64,000 nucleotides of DNA from Cryobacterium flavum (GTDB lineage: Bacteria; Actinomycetota; Actinomycetes; Actinomycetales; Microbacteriaceae). Within the stretch, counting starts at the first letter, position 1, and every line of letters begins with the position of its first letter. This document shows, piece after piece, positions 58,123-64,000 of this stretch. The position numbers and the translations under genes are program-made. The stretch spans positions 186,001 through 250,000 of the forward strand of contig NZ_FNIB01000005.1 in the NCBI RefSeq assembly GCF_900103805.1, read 5' to 3'. Under the pieces are notes generated by a model. The model ran no database searches and was not told the origin of the DNA. It saw nothing but the letters and a program-made list of their open reading frames with translations.

Positions 58123-58931
58123 CTAGTTCTCGTTCCGTTCGCGGCGACGGCGGAACGTCAACAGCACGCCGAGGCCCAGCAGAAGAACGCCCCCGACGAT
58201 GGCGGGAACGGGCAGGTCAACCCCGGTGCGGGATAGGGCGGCCGGCCGCGCCGCCGCTGACGAAGCCCCCAGAACTGCGACGAACACACCCGTGTCGGCG
58301 CAGGCCGACGACGAAAACGGCCCAGCGACCGCGTCGCGCAGGGACACCACGAGGCCCAGATTCGCCGTCTCATTCTGCCCGGTCAGCCCGGTCACGTTCC
58401 TCATGTCGATCCTGACCTCGGCTCTCAGCGTCGCGCCGGTGGCGAGCGGCTGAACCGGCGCAAGCACCGCACAATCTGCGTCGCCCGCGAACGTCACGGT
58501 GGGCGCGGTGGGGTCGGCAGGGGTCGTGACGCCCAGGGTGAGGTACTGATCAGCCCAGCGGATGCCCCCTCCGCACTACGCAGACTCACCCGCACGACCG
58601 CGGGCTGGTCGCTCGGGTTGTGGATCCACAGGGACGCCCGCATCGACCCATTCGGAATCAACGTCCCATACGCGTCAAACAAATCGGTCGGCAGACTGCT
58701 CGCGAAGTGCACACCGTCCAAGCTGACCTGCACGTCGCCGAGCCGAGCGTTGCTGGCCTGGGCAGCACTGGACAGAGATTTGGGTGCCGCAGCCGATGCC
58801 GGCCCGGCCGCACCGGCAAGTATCGGGAGCGCCAGCAACAGCGCCGAGGCCACGGCACCGAGCAGGCGCCCGCGACGAAGGGCACGTGCGCGGAATTCGC
58901 AAATAGGGGGCTGGGTGTAATGCGGCTGCAT
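58123..58931 (-). pseudogene. LPXTG-like wall-anchored surface protein, frameshifted
   Basis: Two frames form one protein of about 270 residues. The first (58494-58931) has a signal peptide (ASALLLALPILAGAAGPASAAAP) and reads into VRVSLRSAEGASAG before drifting out of frame. The second (58123-58497) resumes with TVTFAGDADCAVLAP and ends with a sortase-like signal: SRTGVDLPVPAIVGG, a hydrophobic stretch and RRRRERNEN. One G missing from a five-G tract (58565-58569) would restore one open frame reading SAEGGIRWADQYLTLGV. So it is either an assembly error in a homopolymer, phase variation or decay. The anchored protein would end the SipW operon. Confidence 0.8.
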
Positions 58932-58934
58932 CGA

Positions 58935-59513
58935 TCAGACCACCGAGTGGCTATGGGCGCCGCGAGGACGACGGCGGCCGGCACGGACTCCAGCGACGAG
59001 CATCACAGCCGAGTATCCGAGCAGGGCCACGGCCACTGCCGGAATGATCAGCGCTCGGCTCGCCCCGTTGACGAAGTTATTGGCATAGCCGATCAGCGGA
59101 ACGGAATACCACAGTCGCCCCTGAATCTGGGCGGAGAGCACGAGGTCGGGATCGGGAAGACTGTTGTTGTCTCCCTGAAACTGAAAACTCCGGGTACCGT
59201 CCGTGGAGGAGCTGATCGCGGTGATGCGGTGGGTGATCACTGCCGGCTCGCCCGAGTGAATCTGATAGGTCGCGATATCCCCGATTACGAGGTCGTCGGT
59301 GTTGACCGGGCCGACCACGATCAGGGTGCCGGGCGGCAGGTGTGGCTCCATCGAGCTGGTCAGCACCGTCAGTGGGGTCGCGCCCGTGATCTTGGGCACG
59401 ATGACCAGCAGAGCGAACAGCATGAGCACCAGCAGGAGCAACGCACCGCTGATGACCAGGCCCAGGGCGTGCAGCAGTCCAGTCGGCCTGGCCCCCTTCG
59501 AACCGTGCCCCAT
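58935..59513 (-). CDS. sipW: SipW-type signal peptidase I
   Basis: A 192-residue membrane protease. An N-terminal helix (about residues 16-40) is followed by the catalytic Ser in LTSSMEPHLPPGTL, then GDIATYQ and the catalytic-dyad His in VITHRITAI; a His instead of the usual Lys marks the SipW/archaeal type. GDNNSLPDP and a C-terminal helix complete it. It probably removes the alternate-type signal peptides of the three exported proteins upstream in the operon. The start ATG overlaps the preceding stop (TAATG). Confidence 0.9.
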   Translation of the reverse strand: MGHGSKGARPTGLLHALGLVISGALLLLVLMLFALLVIVPKITGATPLTVLTSSMEPHLPPGTLIVVGPVNTDDLVIGDIATYQIHSGEPAVITHRITAISSSTDGTRSFQFQGDNNSLPDPDLVLSAQIQGRLWYSVPLIGYANNFVNGASRALIIPAVAVALLGYSAVMLVAGVRAGRRRPRGAHSHSVV

Positions 59514-60814
59514 TAGTTCGCCGCCGTCAATGTGAACTGCTGGGCGCTGCCGGCGCTGCAGCTTTGCGTCTGTAGCGCGGTTCCGGCTGTGTGACTCGGC
59601 ACCGTGATGCATTCCGTTTTGTTCTTGTTCACTTGGATGACGAACTGGTACAGACCGTTTCCCGACAGTGTGCCGCCCCACTGCTGGCTGGAGTCACTCA
59701 CGTTGCGTGTCGCCATCACCACAGCTGCCGTGGTGGTGCGCTGCCAAGCCAGCCCAGCCGCTGCCTGCGAGTTGATGAGGTAGTCGCTCTGGTTGACCAA
59801 GTCAAATTGCCAGAGCTGAGTGGTCAGCGACTCGTTGCATACCTGCACTGTCACGGGTCCGTTCGCGTTGGTGGAACCCGTGACACACAGGCCCCCACTC
59901 TTGACTCGGTACCAGCTGGTCGACGACGGTGACTGGCTGGTGGTCGCAGTGGCGGCCGATGACATGGTCGAGAAGTTGCCGGCCGCGTCGACAGCGTCGA
60001 CCGTGTAGACGTAGGTCGTGCCGACATTGAGTCCGGTATCGGTGTAGGTTCTGCCGGTGATGTCCGGCCCGACCCGCTCCCCGTCGCGATAGAGGCGGTA
60101 GATGGCGACACCGACGTTGTCGCTGGCGGCCGTCCAGGTGAGTGTGGCGGCGGCATCCGTTGTCGATGTGGCGGTCAGATTAGTCGGTGAGGTCGGCCGG
60201 GAGACATCGGGAATAGTCTGTGTCACGGTTACCGACTCGGCCTGGGCGTTCCAGTTGGTACCGACGGCGGCGCTCGGATCGAGTCGAACCGCGACCTGGC
60301 CTCCGGCGTAGGTCGACATCGACGTGGACGACATCGCAGTGCGTACGCAGAGCACGACGAACCCATTCGCGGCCAGGGACCCGGTCATCGGCGTTGCGCT
60401 CGCCCAGGTAAAGACGGTCTGGTTTCCGGGCAGGGTCGTGCTCGCGGTGCAATTGGCGGCGGCGGCGACCGGCCACGTCGTGACGGTGACAGCTCCGGCG
60501 AGCGCCGCGGGCGACGACACGGCGCTGAACGTCAATGTGTACGTTGACGGCACGGATCCGCTGGTGAGCGTGATGGGCTTGGTCGTGGTGGAGCTGCCCG
60601 TCGTGTAATCGAATTTCAGCTGGTCGTAGCCGGATTGTGTGATGCTGACCTTGCCCGAAGTCACGGATCCGGTGGCTGGGGATGCCGCGGTGGTCCAGGC
60701 GGCATGGGCGGCGCCGGAGGCTGCGAGCACGAGAAAGAGAACGGTGCCGAGCAGGGCGGCGGTGTGGCGCTGCCGGCGAGGTCGAGCGACAGCCTGGCGG
60801 CGTGAACGGGTCAT
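59513..60814 (-). CDS. Secreted fibronectin-III and ricin-type lectin protein, likely SipW substrate
   Basis: A 433-residue protein. A basic N-terminus and hydrophobic stretch end at GAAHAAW, followed by TTAASPATGSVTSGKVSI, an alternate-signal-like region. Residues 45-195 show little similarity; about 205-295 is a fibronectin type III domain (PTSPTNLTATSTTDAAATLTW in outline, YTVDAVDAAGNFS). About 300-433 looks like a ricin-B beta-trefoil: WYRVKSGGLCVTGS, TQLWQFDLVN, QFVIQVNKNKTECITVPS and QTQSCSAGSAQQF. It may bind glycans at the surface. The stop overlaps the sipW start. Confidence 0.82.
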   Translation of the reverse strand: MTRSRRQAVARPRRQRHTAALLGTVLFLVLAASGAAHAAWTTAASPATGSVTSGKVSITQSGYDQLKFDYTTGSSTTTKPITLTSGSVPSTYTLTFSAVSSPAALAGAVTVTTWPVAAAANCTASTTLPGNQTVFTWASATPMTGSLAANGFVVLCVRTAMSSTSMSTYAGGQVAVRLDPSAAVGTNWNAQAESVTVTQTIPDVSRPTSPTNLTATSTTDAAATLTWTAASDNVGVAIYRLYRDGERVGPDITGRTYTDTGLNVGTTYVYTVDAVDAAGNFSTMSSAATATTSQSPSSTSWYRVKSGGLCVTGSTNANGPVTVQVCNESLTTQLWQFDLVNQSDYLINSQAAAGLAWQRTTTAAVVMATRNVSDSSQQWGGTLSGNGLYQFVIQVNKNKTECITVPSHTAGTALQTQSCSAGSAQQFTLTAAN

Positions 60815-60817
60815 GGC

Positions 60818-61426
60818 TTAGGCCTGCACTCCGGTGAGAACGACGGAAAAGTTGGCAGCAGACGACGACTGGCTCACACTCGGGGCGCCCGCGGGCAGCG
60901 CGATCAGCACGCAGACTGTTCGGGACTGGGCCTTAGCGAGCGTCAGGCCCACCGCCGTCGACGGCGCACTGGCAAATGTTCCGCTGGTGCTGGGGATGAC
61001 CGCGCTCGTGCACGCAGCCGAGCTGTCGACGACGGCGAGACCGATGGTGAGCGAATCGGACAGGGTCGAAGTAACAGCCGGCGCGAGGAGCGAGGAGCGG
61101 GTCACGGCCAGTGGCACGTCACCGGTGTTCGTGACGGTGACCGGGGCGGCAATAACCAGTCCCGGGTACAGGGGCACGGCGGGAAGGGCGAGGGCCGAGA
61201 CCGTCATCGTGGCCGTTCCCGACGCTATCGTGGCCGAGGAGGTGGCGGCACTCGAGTTCAGGAGGGCGTAGGTGCCGCTGGCAGCGGTCGTGGCCAGCAC
61301 GACTGCCATAAGAGTGGATGCTGCGGCCAAGACCAGGGCCCGCGCGCGTAGCCGCAGGGTCGGCACAGCACGGTGGCGACGACGCTCGGCAGGCGAAGCG
61401 GTGTGGCGGCCACGGGTTGTTTTCAT
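60818..61426 (-). CDS. SipW-dependent-type exported protein
   Basis: A 202-residue protein. A long N-terminus (Arg-rich, RARALVLAAASTLMAVVLATTAASG) leads into TYALLNSSAATSSATIASGT, the characteristic post-cleavage motif of SipW-dependent exported proteins (camelysin/TasA relatives). The mature part is Ser/Thr/Val-rich beta sequence with few charges, possibly fibre-forming or surface-coating. ATG 61426 chosen; ribosome site weak. Lies 3 nt before the Fn3/lectin gene. Confidence 0.82.
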   Translation of the reverse strand: MKTTRGRHTASPAERRRHRAVPTLRLRARALVLAAASTLMAVVLATTAASGTYALLNSSAATSSATIASGTATMTVSALALPAVPLYPGLVIAAPVTVTNTGDVPLAVTRSSLLAPAVTSTLSDSLTIGLAVVDSSAACTSAVIPSTSGTFASAPSTAVGLTLAKAQSRTVCVLIALPAGAPSVSQSSSAANFSVVLTGVQA

Positions 61427-61539
61427 GTGATCACCGCGCTTTCTGGTCGAACGGAGGAGCTGGAGGGAGAATCGCACCGCCCGGGGTGCCCATCGTCGGG
61501 TGATGGGCACGCCAGGGACAGTGCAGGAGGTGGTGAAGA

Positions 61540-62112
61540 CTAAGTGGTCTGCGTCAGGGTCACGGCGAGGGCGCCGAGGTTGACCGAGCCGAGCATGGCG
61601 TCGTTCTCGGCTCCTGCACTGCTGCTCTTGGGGAACGTCAGGATGACGGTGACCACGGCAGCGCGAGAGATAACGCCGGTCCCGGTCGGTGTGATCGTGT
61701 AGGTCGGGCCGGCACCGCTGATGCCTACGCCACTGATCGACACCTGGGCGCTCTTCGTGATGTAGCCCGCGAGCTTCCCATCAGGTGTGCTGGTTGCGCT
61801 CGTGGCGGTGATGCTCGCTGAAGCAACGGCCAGAGTCGCGACCATGTTGTCGCCGGTCGCCGTGATGTCAACCTTCTTCGTGTAGGTGAGGACGTCACCG
61901 GGCACGATCTTGTACGTGCTCAGGATGATTTCGGTGGCACCGCTCTTCCAAACACCGGCGGCGGCATTGTCGACCACTGTCAGGGCGCCGGCGGTGATCG
62001 TTCCGCCGGCAATCGATGTACTCGAATTCCAGAGCGCGAACGTTCCCGCGCCGCCGAGCAGCAGGGTCAGTCCGGCGGCACCGGCGATAGCGCTAACGAG
62101 AAGCTTGTTCAT
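61540..62112 (-). CDS. Alternate signal-mediated exported protein (RER_14450-like)
   Basis: A 190-residue protein with a short signal (NKLLVSAIAGAAGLTLLLGG), followed by GTFALWNSSTSIAGGTITAG, the alternate-signal motif named for RER_14450-type proteins in actinobacteria. The mature region is Thr/Ala/Ile-rich and beta-strand-like (VVDNAAAGVWK, YTKKVDITATGDN, VILTFPKSSSAG). GAAAGGTC precedes ATG 62112. It is the first gene of the operon, the position often held by the major matrix or coat protein. Confidence 0.85.
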   Translation of the reverse strand: MNKLLVSAIAGAAGLTLLLGGAGTFALWNSSTSIAGGTITAGALTVVDNAAAGVWKSGATEIILSTYKIVPGDVLTYTKKVDITATGDNMVATLAVASASITATSATSTPDGKLAGYITKSAQVSISGVGISGAGPTYTITPTGTGVISRAAVVTVILTFPKSSSAGAENDAMLGSVNLGALAVTLTQTT

Positions 62113-62166: not shown

Positions 62167-62188
62167 GGACAGACAGATTTGTCTGTCC
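62167..62188. promoter_or_regulatory. Inverted repeat upstream of the SipW operon
   Basis: GGACAGACA and TGTCTGTCC form perfect 9-bp arms around GATT, 55 bp before the first SipW-operon gene. The half-site GACAGAC recurs on the photolyase side (62342). The 306-bp divergent gap 62113-62418 contains both. Confidence 0.6.
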
Positions 62189-62418: not shown

Positions 62419-63840
62419 ATGACTTCAGATCAGATAGCCGACCACGTCGGGCCCGTCATAGTGTGGTTTCGCGACGATCTGCGGGTTGCCGACCATCCAG
62501 CCCTGCACGCGGCGATCAAGCAGGGGCAGCCGATTGTGGCCCTCTACCTGCTTGACGAGCAATCCGACGGAGTCCGCCCGCTCGGCGGCGCGGCCCGTTG
62601 GTGGCTGCACCAGAGTCTGCGATCCCTCGCCGGCTCCATCGCCGCCCTCGGTGGCCGGTTGATTCTGCGCCGCGGTGCGGCCGGCCCGATCATCGCCCGC
62701 CTGGTGCACGAGACGGATGCCTCCGCCGTGTTCTGGAACCGCCGCTACGGCCTCGCCGAACGCACGATCGACACCGCGATCAAGAGCGACCTGCGTGAGC
62801 GCGGAATCGACGCCCATAGTTTCGCCGGTTCGCTTCTGTTCGAACCCTGGACGATTCAGACCGGGCAGGGCGGCTCCTACTCCGTCTTCACCCCGTTCTG
62901 GCGGGCCTGCACCGCGGGTGCGCCGCCCCGCGTGCCCTATCCCGCACCCTCCGCTATTCCCGGCTGGGCGGGCGACCCCACCACGGCAGCCCTCGTCTCC
63001 GACGACCTCGACGACTGGGGACTCGCACCGTCGAGCCCCGATTGGGCGGGTGGGCTGCGCGCCGCGTGGACGCCGGGCGAAGCATCCGCTCACGCCCTGC
63101 TCACCACCTTTCTGGCCGAGTCACTCGCCCTCTACGCCACCGAACGCGACGAACCGGCCCAGAACGCGACATCGCGCCTGTCTCCGCACCTGCGCTGGGG
63201 CGAGATCAGCCCCCACCAGGTGTGGGCGGCGACAAACAATGCCCGGCGCGGGCTCAGCGGTAGCGAGTCGGCCAGCGCGACCCGTTTTCTGACCGAGGTC
63301 GGCTGGCGGGAGTTCGCGTACCACGTGCTTTATCATGCGCCAGATATCGCGACCGCGAACCTACGCCCCGCCTTCGACGCTTTTCCGTGGCCGCCACTCG
63401 ATCGGGATGCCCTGGCGGCCTGGCAGCAGGGTCGCACTGGCTTTGCCCTGGTCGACGCCGGCATGCGTGAACTGTGGCGCACCGGAAGCATGCACAATCG
63501 GGTACGCATGGTGACGGCATCATTCCTGATCAAGAATATGTTGGTCGATTGGCGTGAGGGCGAGCGCTGGTTTTGGGACACCCTGGTGGACGCCGACGCG
63601 GCGAGCAACCCGTTCGGCTGGCAATGGGTGGCCGGTTCCGGAGCGGATGCGGCACCGTATTTTCGTATTTTCAATCCCGACCTGCAGGCAGCCAAGTTCG
63701 ACCCGCACCAGCAATACATTCGGCAAAACGTTCCCGAATACGGCACGGATGCCTATCCGGCGCCGCTCGTCGACCTCGGCGAGACGCGTCGCGCCGCCCT
63801 GGCCGCCTACGAACGGGTCAAGGCGCAACCGGCAGGCTAG
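62419..63840 (+). CDS. phrB: Deoxyribodipyrimidine photolyase
   Basis: A 473-residue photolyase/cryptochrome. N-terminal alpha/beta domain: VIVWFRDDLRVADHPAL. FAD-binding C-terminal domain: LSPHLRWGEISPHQVW, VGWREFAYHVL, RTGFALVDAGMRELWRTGSMHNRVRM (outline), NPFGWQWVAGSGADAAPYFRIFNP. These fit class I CPD photolyases, which repair UV-damaged DNA with blue light. ATG 62419 follows GAGGAG. Its promoter shares sequence motifs with the SipW operon next door. Confidence 0.95.
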   Translation: MTSDQIADHVGPVIVWFRDDLRVADHPALHAAIKQGQPIVALYLLDEQSDGVRPLGGAARWWLHQSLRSLAGSIAALGGRLILRRGAAGPIIARLVHETDASAVFWNRRYGLAERTIDTAIKSDLRERGIDAHSFAGSLLFEPWTIQTGQGGSYSVFTPFWRACTAGAPPRVPYPAPSAIPGWAGDPTTAALVSDDLDDWGLAPSSPDWAGGLRAAWTPGEASAHALLTTFLAESLALYATERDEPAQNATSRLSPHLRWGEISPHQVWAATNNARRGLSGSESASATRFLTEVGWREFAYHVLYHAPDIATANLRPAFDAFPWPPLDRDALAAWQQGRTGFALVDAGMRELWRTGSMHNRVRMVTASFLIKNMLVDWREGERWFWDTLVDADAASNPFGWQWVAGSGADAAPYFRIFNPDLQAAKFDPHQQYIRQNVPEYGTDAYPAPLVDLGETRRAALAAYERVKAQPAG

Positions 63841-63998
63841 GCAGCGCGAACGGAGATTCGGGTCTTTCCCGCTGACTCTTTCGTCGACCTCGCACCGGGC
63901 CCGGCTTCGGACGACCCGGCGTACCAGATGCTCAGTACGCACATGATGAGGGAGCCTACGGCGAGCGGGTTTTGCAAGTACACAACGAGATAGCCAAG
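63837..63998 (-). CDS. 3' end of a membrane-protein gene (start outside window)
   Basis: Fifty-three codons are open to the window edge and end at TAG, complement of 63837-63839, overlapping the photolyase stop. They contain a hydrophobic stretch (NPLAVGSLIMCVLSIWY) and a polar tail ending VRAA. The family cannot be assigned from this fragment. Confidence 0.45.
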   Translation of the reverse strand, partial: LGYLVVYLQNPLAVGSLIMCVLSIWYAGSSEAGPGARSTKESAGKTRISVRAA

Positions 63999-64000
63999 GT

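What the first reader, a model, noticed from the sequence alone, without database searches (positions are those of the whole stretch)
58123..62112. Compact SipW-type surface export operon with an actinobacterial set of substrates and an anchor
Five minus-strand genes sit together: an RER_14450-like exported protein, a second alternate-signal protein, a fibronectin-III/ricin-lectin protein with a similar signal, a SipW-type (Ser-His) signal peptidase, and an LPXTG-like wall-anchored protein. Stops and starts overlap or nearly touch for the last four. In Bacillus, SipW with TasA/TapA builds biofilm fibres; here the substrates differ and a lectin and an anchor are added, suggesting a matrix or cell-coat system. 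The combination is inference; the signals and peptidase motif are seen directly.
Basis: partly seen in the sequence, partly recalled or inferred. Interest (0 to 1): 0.75.

Follow-up and report, generated by a model that had tools for sequence, protein, structure and literature searches.

The report
Wall-anchored lectin-tipped SipW fibre operon
A five-gene set shared by many relatives of this bacterium looks like the kit for a surface fibre with a sugar-binding tip and a cell-wall base, a variant of the Bacillus biofilm fibre; the wall-anchor gene is broken in this particular genome.

Summary
The genes are real and the cluster is conserved. On the minus strand of a Cryobacterium-like contig lie g1 (SipW substrate, TIGR04089), g2 (weakly TasA/AbpX/BsaA-like), g3 (SipW-type signal by eye, g2-like body, Fn3, ricin lectin), a SipW peptidase, and g5 (sortase-signal protein). 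g5 is split by a frame break here; intact copies exist in relatives. g1 and g3 accompany SipW in 27 of 28 strong loci of the genus; in 20 of 20 loci from 15 other Microbacteriaceae genera g1 comes first and g5-SipW last. Profile comparison relates the g5 core to the g2 body (96-97%; 0 of 60 shuffles above 50%), but g5 has a standard signal and no recognisable donor-like N-terminus. In 7 of 18 g3 proteins of other genera the body gave no match while signal and donor-like segment remain. One relative has g2 naturally fused to g3 at that segment. I propose a strand-exchange fibre: g3 lectin tip (donor), g2 adaptor, g1 shaft, g5 wall anchor (acceptor), with SipW freeing the donor strands and class E sortase fixing the base. 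Genes and neighbourhood are firm; polymerisation and subunit order are inference. New variant of the TasA/SipW kind.

The parts
61540..62112 (-). g1, probable major fibre subunit: SipW-type signal, TIGR04089 (RER_14450) family
   Evidence: AF2 model; best PDB fold match TasA fibre 8aur
61987..62034 (-). donor-like N-terminal segment of mature g1 (residues about 27-42), no regular structure in the model
   Evidence: cleavage site inferred from alignment A2
61480..61516 (-). GC-rich hairpin between g1 and g2
   Evidence: control
60818..61426 (-). g2, proposed adaptor subunit: SipW-type signal by alignment, weakly TasA-like body
59513..60814 (-). g3: SipW-type signal by alignment, g2-like body, Fn3, ricin B lectin; proposed tip adhesin
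58935..59513 (-). SipW-type (Ser-His) signal peptidase, TIGR02228
58123..58931 (-). g5: g2-related Ig-type core plus sortase signal (LSRTG, hydrophobic stretch, RRRR); proposed wall anchor; frame broken near 58551, read as ORFs 58494-58931 and 58123-58497
62167..62188 (.). perfect palindrome GGACAGACA-N4-TGTCTGTCC upstream of g1, candidate operator

Best explanation
The operon builds a non-covalent surface fibre by N-terminal strand exchange, as TasA does. SipW cleaves g1, g2 and g3 and frees a short N-terminal strand on each. Each subunit's strand fills the groove of the next. g3 starts the fibre: its strand goes into g2 and its lectin is the exposed tip. g2 is the adaptor, g1 the repeated shaft. 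g5 has a g2-related body but not the SipW-type N-terminus: it accepts the strand of the last subunit and is fixed to the wall by class E sortase, so it ends and anchors the fibre. Shown: gene content, conserved neighbourhood, SipW with its Ser and His, g1 as a SipW-substrate family member, the g5-g2 and g2-g3 relations, sortase in the genome. Inferred: polymerisation, subunit order, lectin at the tip, g5 as acceptor, sortase acting on g5. In this genome the anchor is broken or misread.
For: g1 is over the cut-off of a curated SipW-substrate family. The best of 350,542 PDB chains for the g1 model is the TasA fibre 8aur (prob 0.95, E 8e-3); its residues 1-42 have no regular structure. The deeper g2 profile's top four PDB matches are TasA (E 0.045, 0.051) and AbpX (0.17, 0.25). 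hhalign: g2 body to g3 body 96.8%, g2 body to g5 core 96.1% (whole families 96.7% and 96.6%); reversed copies 0-19%, Fn3/ricin/SipW 0-3%; 0 of 60 column shuffles over 50%. The first core strand of the g5 model is confidently folded (pLDDT block 96), unlike the g1 N-terminus. 7 of 18 g3 proteins of other genera keep signal and donor-like segment (by eye) but give no match to the body profile. Natural g2-g3 fusion in L062 with the join at the donor-like segment. SipW Ser and His in 32 of 32 copies examined. Class E sortase 236 bits, cut-off 160. g1 first and g5-SipW last in 20 of 20 loci of other genera. TasA strand exchange, and TapA residues 44-57 being enough for biofilm: PMC9674648 and PMC10151520 (passages).
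Against: Fold evidence is weak: TM-score of g1 to TasA 0.34, no match under E 0.001; g1 gives no PDB sequence match; PF12389 is under its cut-off (15.0 against 22.5). Without signal and first 22 mature residues g1 and g2 bodies do not match (0.4%). g5 core against g1 0.8%, against g3 body only 43%; g1 against g3 body 0.4%. Length does not show a missing strand in g5: g2 has a median of 33 residues before the shared P-G turn, g5 a median of 24 from its first core strand plus a spacer of median 4 (last AxA site) to 13 (first AxA site). Fold matches of g5 are generic (best an enzyme, AvmM). g5 is absent in 8 of 28 loci of the genus and broken here. No complex was modelled. No sortase gene was seen in the operon.
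Confidence: 0.45

Rival explanations
1. Unanchored matrix fibre as in Bacillus or Clostridium perfringens: g1 (with g2) polymerises and is shed into a biofilm matrix; g3 is a matrix lectin; g5 is a TapA-like or CapP-like starter that stays at the cell and donates a strand or acts as chaperone.
For: g5 is missing in 8 of 28 loci of the genus and broken here while the rest stays; BsaA polymers form without the neighbouring sortase (PMC7395162 passages); CapP sits at the wall through its C-domain and acts chaperone-like (PMC13082335 abstract and passages); the weak fold matches of g5 include pilus chaperones; the N-terminal length of g5 does not exclude a strand.
Against: g5 has no recognisable donor-like motif and its first strand is folded in its own model; it carries a sortase signal and a SipW gene is beside it in 31 of 31 loci looked at.
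Confidence: 0.3
2. No polymer: a coat of separate exported proteins (g1-g3) held at the surface, g3 binding sugars for attachment or nutrient capture; SipW is only their dedicated peptidase.
For: Signals and ricin/Fn3 domains are directly seen; there is no direct evidence of a polymer here, and the TasA resemblance is weak.
Against: Shared donor-like N-termini, body-less g3 copies, g2-g3 fusion, TasA as best fold match.
Confidence: 0.15
3. The locus is decaying in this genome and no longer makes a working surface structure.
For: g5 frame break; the neighbouring second SipW has Pro where the other 8 of 9 copies have the catalytic Ser.
Against: g1, g2, g3 and SipW are open frames close to those of relatives; a single-base break in a 42-contig draft may be a sequencing error.
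Confidence: 0.1

Closest known systems
Bacillus subtilis tapA-sipW-tasA biofilm fibre (PMC9674648, PMC10151520; passages)
   Same: SipW peptidase in the operon; substrate with SipW-type signal; TasA fibre is the best fold match of g1; N-terminal segment in the place of the TasA donor strand
   Different: No TapA match among the five proteins; several substrates; a lectin/Fn3 protein and a sortase-signal protein in the operon; g1 under the cut-off of the camelysin Pfam model
Clostridium perfringens sipW-bsaABCRSD (PMC7395162; passages)
   Same: SipW with a filament protein; 13 of 28 g2 relatives match the BsaA-family model TIGR04090 at E up to 1
   Different: The paper reports no LPXTG motif in BsaA, no need of the neighbouring sortase, and the word lectin does not occur in its main text; here a sortase-signal gene is part of the operon
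Bacillus cereus CapP-TasA-CalY (PMC13082335; abstract and passages)
   Same: Two fibre subunits plus a wall-located helper
   Different: Described as sortase-independent; here the helper-like g5 carries a sortase signal
Chaperone-usher pili (recalled)
   Same: Works-like comparison: strand exchange, major subunit, adaptor, tip lectin
   Different: No chaperone or usher among the five genes; Gram-positive; a SipW peptidase instead

Membership tests
SipW-type signal peptidase (TIGR02228) | profile match over cut-off; Ser and His residues | tested here: met
   77.2 bits, cut-off 51.85; S-M-x-P and T-H-R motifs in 32 of 32 copies examined, of 36 found by profile
RER_14450 family of SipW substrates (TIGR04089) | profile match of g1 over cut-off | tested here: met
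   125.6 bits, cut-off 60
TasA/camelysin (PF12389) | Pfam match of g1 over cut-off | tested here: not met
   15.0 bits, cut-off 22.5
TasA-like strand-exchange fibre | jelly-roll/Ig-like subunit fold | tested here: inconclusive
   g1 best PDB match 8aur, prob 0.95, TM 0.34; g2 weak sequence match
TasA-like strand-exchange fibre | free N-terminal strand that fills the neighbour's groove | tested here: inconclusive
   segment unstructured in the g1 model, similar by eye in g1-g3; no complex modelled
TasA-like strand-exchange fibre | fibres seen | not testable with these tools
   needs microscopy
tapA-sipW-tasA system | TapA homologue in the operon | tested here: not met
   no TapA/YqxM model among NCBIfam or Pfam matches of the five proteins; the rest of the genome was not searched for it
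Sortase-anchored surface protein | C-terminal LPXTG-like signal | tested here: met
   TIGR01167: 18.3 bits for window ORF 58123-58497, 16.4 for the intact L045 copy, cut-off 15.9; the L126 copy shows only NF058582 under its cut-off
Sortase-anchored surface protein | sortase in the genome | tested here: met
   class E sortase 236.2 bits, cut-off 160; not next to the operon
BsaA family (TIGR04090) | profile match of window g2 | tested here: not met
   no match for window g2; relatives 13 of 28 at E up to 1, best 1.6e-4
Chaperone-usher pili | usher and chaperone genes | not tested
   none among family matches of the five proteins; genome not searched for them

The most novel reading that the evidence does not exclude
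A Gram-positive strand-exchange pilus in which the two ends are marked by which half of the joint they keep: tip adhesins keep the donor strand and may swap everything else, the base keeps the acceptor body, has no donor strand and gains a sortase signal. It would be a modular, wall-anchored, lectin-tipped TasA-type pilus found across Microbacteriaceae.
Probability: 0.35. Interest if true: 0.8.

Novelty: new variant of a known kind. Interest (0 to 1): 0.6.

Why it matters
How TasA-type fibres are tipped and fixed to cells is, as far as I know, not settled. Here a conserved operon offers named candidates for tip, adaptor, shaft and base, and natural domain swaps and a fusion that suggest a testable order. 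In the listings of nine searches of an open-licence library I saw no paper that describes such an actinobacterial system; subscription papers and preprints are mostly not held there.

Tried and rejected
g5 as a GroEL-like protein: the PDB profile hits to GroEL (E about 0.004) were gone with the deeper alignment A6; rejected. g1 in the camelysin Pfam family: under cut-off. g1-g2 body homology: not supported once signal and first 22 mature residues are removed (0.4%); mature chains with the donor-like segment give 80.7%, whole chains 96.6%, so the match leans on the N-terminus. For these mature sets 35 of 36 g1 and 35 of 39 g2 sequences were used; the others were dropped because my cleavage pattern did not fit. 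g5 as phylum-wide: 69 of 396 genomes match A6, but apart from this genome and G134 the listed matches begin at profile position 124 or later, that is, they cover the anchor end and at most the last part of the core; likewise 121 of 249 family genomes include anchor-end matches. The hairpin after g1 as a special mark: 21 of 26 g1-g2 gaps tested have one that at most 1 of 40 shuffles reaches (the 26 were taken by hand from 47 loci), but 24 of 64 other gaps have one that 0 of 20 shuffles reach (26 of 66, of which the 91-base gaps of L059 and L070 are g1-g2 gaps that slipped through my filter), so it is enriched, not unique. Chance clustering: rejected.

Full report
What is there. The window is part of contig C22 of genome G000 (4.04 Mb, 42 contigs). 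Its nearest named relatives at this locus are Cryobacterium. On the minus strand lie g1 61540-62112, g2 60818-61426, g3 59513-60814, SipW 58935-59513 and g5 58123-58931. g1 is over the cut-offs of TIGR04089 and TIGR04088, SipW over that of TIGR02228, g3 has fn3 and ricin B lectin domains, and the end of g5 is over the cut-off of LPXTG_anchor. Window g2 has no family match.

The fifth gene is broken here. It reads as two ORFs (58494-58931 and 58123-58497). Aligned with the closest relative (L045) it is identical in 0.907 of all columns, end gaps included, with one internal single-base gap near 58551; the relative has one open frame (243 aa as called). A real mutation and a draft error cannot be told apart here. 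Three near relatives (L047, L049, L050) gave no g5 match at all.

Neighbourhood in the genus. Of 57 genomes of the genus (this one included), 39 match the SipW protein at E 0.001 or better; 28 of these score over 160 bits. I took the region of all 28, and of two weak ones (L072, L073) that are left out of the counts below. g1 and g3 accompany SipW in 27 of 28 (in the exception, L063, my callers found only a SipW frame), g2 in 27 (one as a fusion, three found only as ORFs by profile), g5 in 20 (broken in this genome, two copies in L060); it is missing in 8: L047, L049, L050, L061, L063, L065, L067, L071. Nearly all lie beside the photolyase and quinone-oxidoreductase genes. In 16 of the 20 with g5 it precedes SipW; in this genome, L045, L046 and L048 it follows SipW.

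Neighbourhood beyond the genus. A g5 profile (A1) over 249 genomes of the family matched 121, many by the anchor end only; by my count of the printed rows 65 (this one included) match over the core, and one more (G070) over part of it. In a sample of 396 genomes over the phylum, core matches were only this genome and G134, of the same family. A Propionibacteriales MAG (L008) has a g5-like gene too. A SipW match lies beside g5 in 31 of 31 loci examined: the 30 returned loci, this genome and its closest relative included, and one. I then took longer regions from 20 of the other 64 core-bearing genomes, chosen by me among the better matches, 15 genera in all. All 20 have g1 first and g5-SipW last. 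13 have exactly g1-g2-g3-g5-SipW. In L137, L140 and L141 no g3 was called (an ORF matching the g3 profile was seen in the first two genomes), in L142 and L143 no g2, L138 has an unclassified gene in the place of g2, L139 an extra gene.

Folds. The g1 model (mean pLDDT 77) has as best match among 350,542 PDB chains the TasA fibre 8aur (E 8e-3, prob 0.95, TM 0.34): first in rank, weak in score. Residues 1-42 have no regular structure. The g1 profile finds no PDB sequence. The g2 profile's best four are TasA (5of1, 8aur) and archaeal AbpX, at E 0.047 to 0.66 for the 28-sequence alignment and 0.045 to 0.25 for the 39-sequence one. The g5 model (mean pLDDT 77) is a beta sandwich with a C-terminal helix; 6 matches have E up to 0.001, the best an enzyme (AvmM, 9.9e-5), and the list is of mixed Ig-like domains, pilus chaperones and WxLIP among them.

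Relations between the parts. hhalign on family alignments: g2 with g3 body 96.7%, with g5 core 96.6% (114 columns), with g1 96.6%, with the neighbouring Tas2 95.0%; g5 with Tas2 50%, with g3 body 43%, with g1 0.8%; g1 with g3 body 0.4%. Controls: reversed copies 0-19%; Fn3, ricin and SipW 0-3%; 60 column shuffles of g2 against g5 at most 0.4%, 40 against g1 at most 1.0%. Without signal and first 22 mature residues, g2-g3 (96.8%) and g2-g5 (96.1%) stand; g1-g2 does not (0.4%). So g2, g3 and g5 share a body through g2; g1 is tied to g2 by its N-terminus and to TasA, weakly, by fold. In the own genome the g2 profile finds only g2, g3 and g1, and the SipW signal model is passed only by g1.

Donor and acceptor. 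In TasA the first residues of the mature chain form a strand that fills the next subunit (PMC9674648, passages); for TapA residues 44-57 were enough for biofilm (PMC10151520, passages). g1, g2 and g3 begin, right after the predicted cut, with a Trp- or Leu-containing start and a segment rich in small residues, Thr and Val (by eye). g5 has a standard AxA signal instead, no such motif, and a first core strand that the model folds with confidence. Its spacer before that strand is 3-31 residues taking the first AxA site (36 of 42 members, median 13, 13 of 36 at most 8) or 1-13 taking the last (39 of 42, median 4, 32 of 39 at most 8). The total length before the shared turn is however close to that of g2 (median 33 in g2; 24 plus spacer in g5), so length alone does not show a lost strand. 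In 7 of 18 g3 proteins of other genera (L127, L128, two of L130, L131, L133, L136) the body profile finds nothing and, in the six of these seven that I scanned, DUF11, Fn3, ricin or unassigned stretches follow the segment; an eighth (L144) gave no body match either but looks body-like by eye. In L062 g2 runs into the g3 segment without a g3 signal peptide. These are what one expects if tips must give a strand and bases must take one.

Control elements. A perfect palindrome GGACAGACA-N4-TGTCTGTCC lies at 62167-62188. With up to 2 mismatches it occurs at one place in the whole genome. The core ACAGAC-N6-GTCTGT with up to 2 mismatches is within 250 bases upstream of g1 in 18 of 27 loci of the genus, L050 and L069 being poor (for L044-L046 the pattern column shows a shifted overlapping match, the palindrome itself is in the first column), and within 350 bases in 6 of 20 other loci, mostly as ATAGAC. 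A GC-rich hairpin follows g1 in 21 of 26 gaps tested, against 24 of 64 other gaps; it may raise g1 over the rest, as the predicted terminator after bsaA does (PMC7395162, passages).

Judgement. Cluster and conservation: firm. SipW export of g1: well supported; of g2 and g3: likely. Strand-exchange fibre with lectin tip and sortase base: best reading, a little under even odds. It is not filed as camelysin (Pfam cut-off not met) nor as a tapA operon (no TapA match). It works like TasA and BsaA systems, with an added base and tip. In the listings of nine literature searches of an open library I saw no description of it.

Noticed in passing
window 63837-64000 and beyond (L044 6838-7347): A second SipW (TIGR02228, 58.6 bits) begins at the window end, with a gene of the same neighbourhood, here called Tas2, behind it (L044 7386-8045; no NCBIfam match). 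Its catalytic Ser is Pro here, while the other 8 of 9 copies have Ser.
   Followed up: partly
window 62167-62188: Palindrome found at one place in the genome and recurring upstream of g1 in relatives and some other genera: possible site of a dedicated regulator.
   Followed up: partly
L062 6283-7992: Natural fusion of g2 and g3 without the g3 signal peptide.
   Followed up: partly
L051 7030-9645: g3 with a long run of Fn3-like repeats, as if the stalk were lengthened.
   Followed up: no
L057, L058, L059, L070: Extra g1-SipW units on the other side of the photolyase gene in some relatives (two g1 genes in L057-L059; L070 is cut by its contig end).
   Followed up: no
L130: Two g1-g2-g3-g5 clusters in tandem in one genome, with SipW called only between them.
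   Followed up: no
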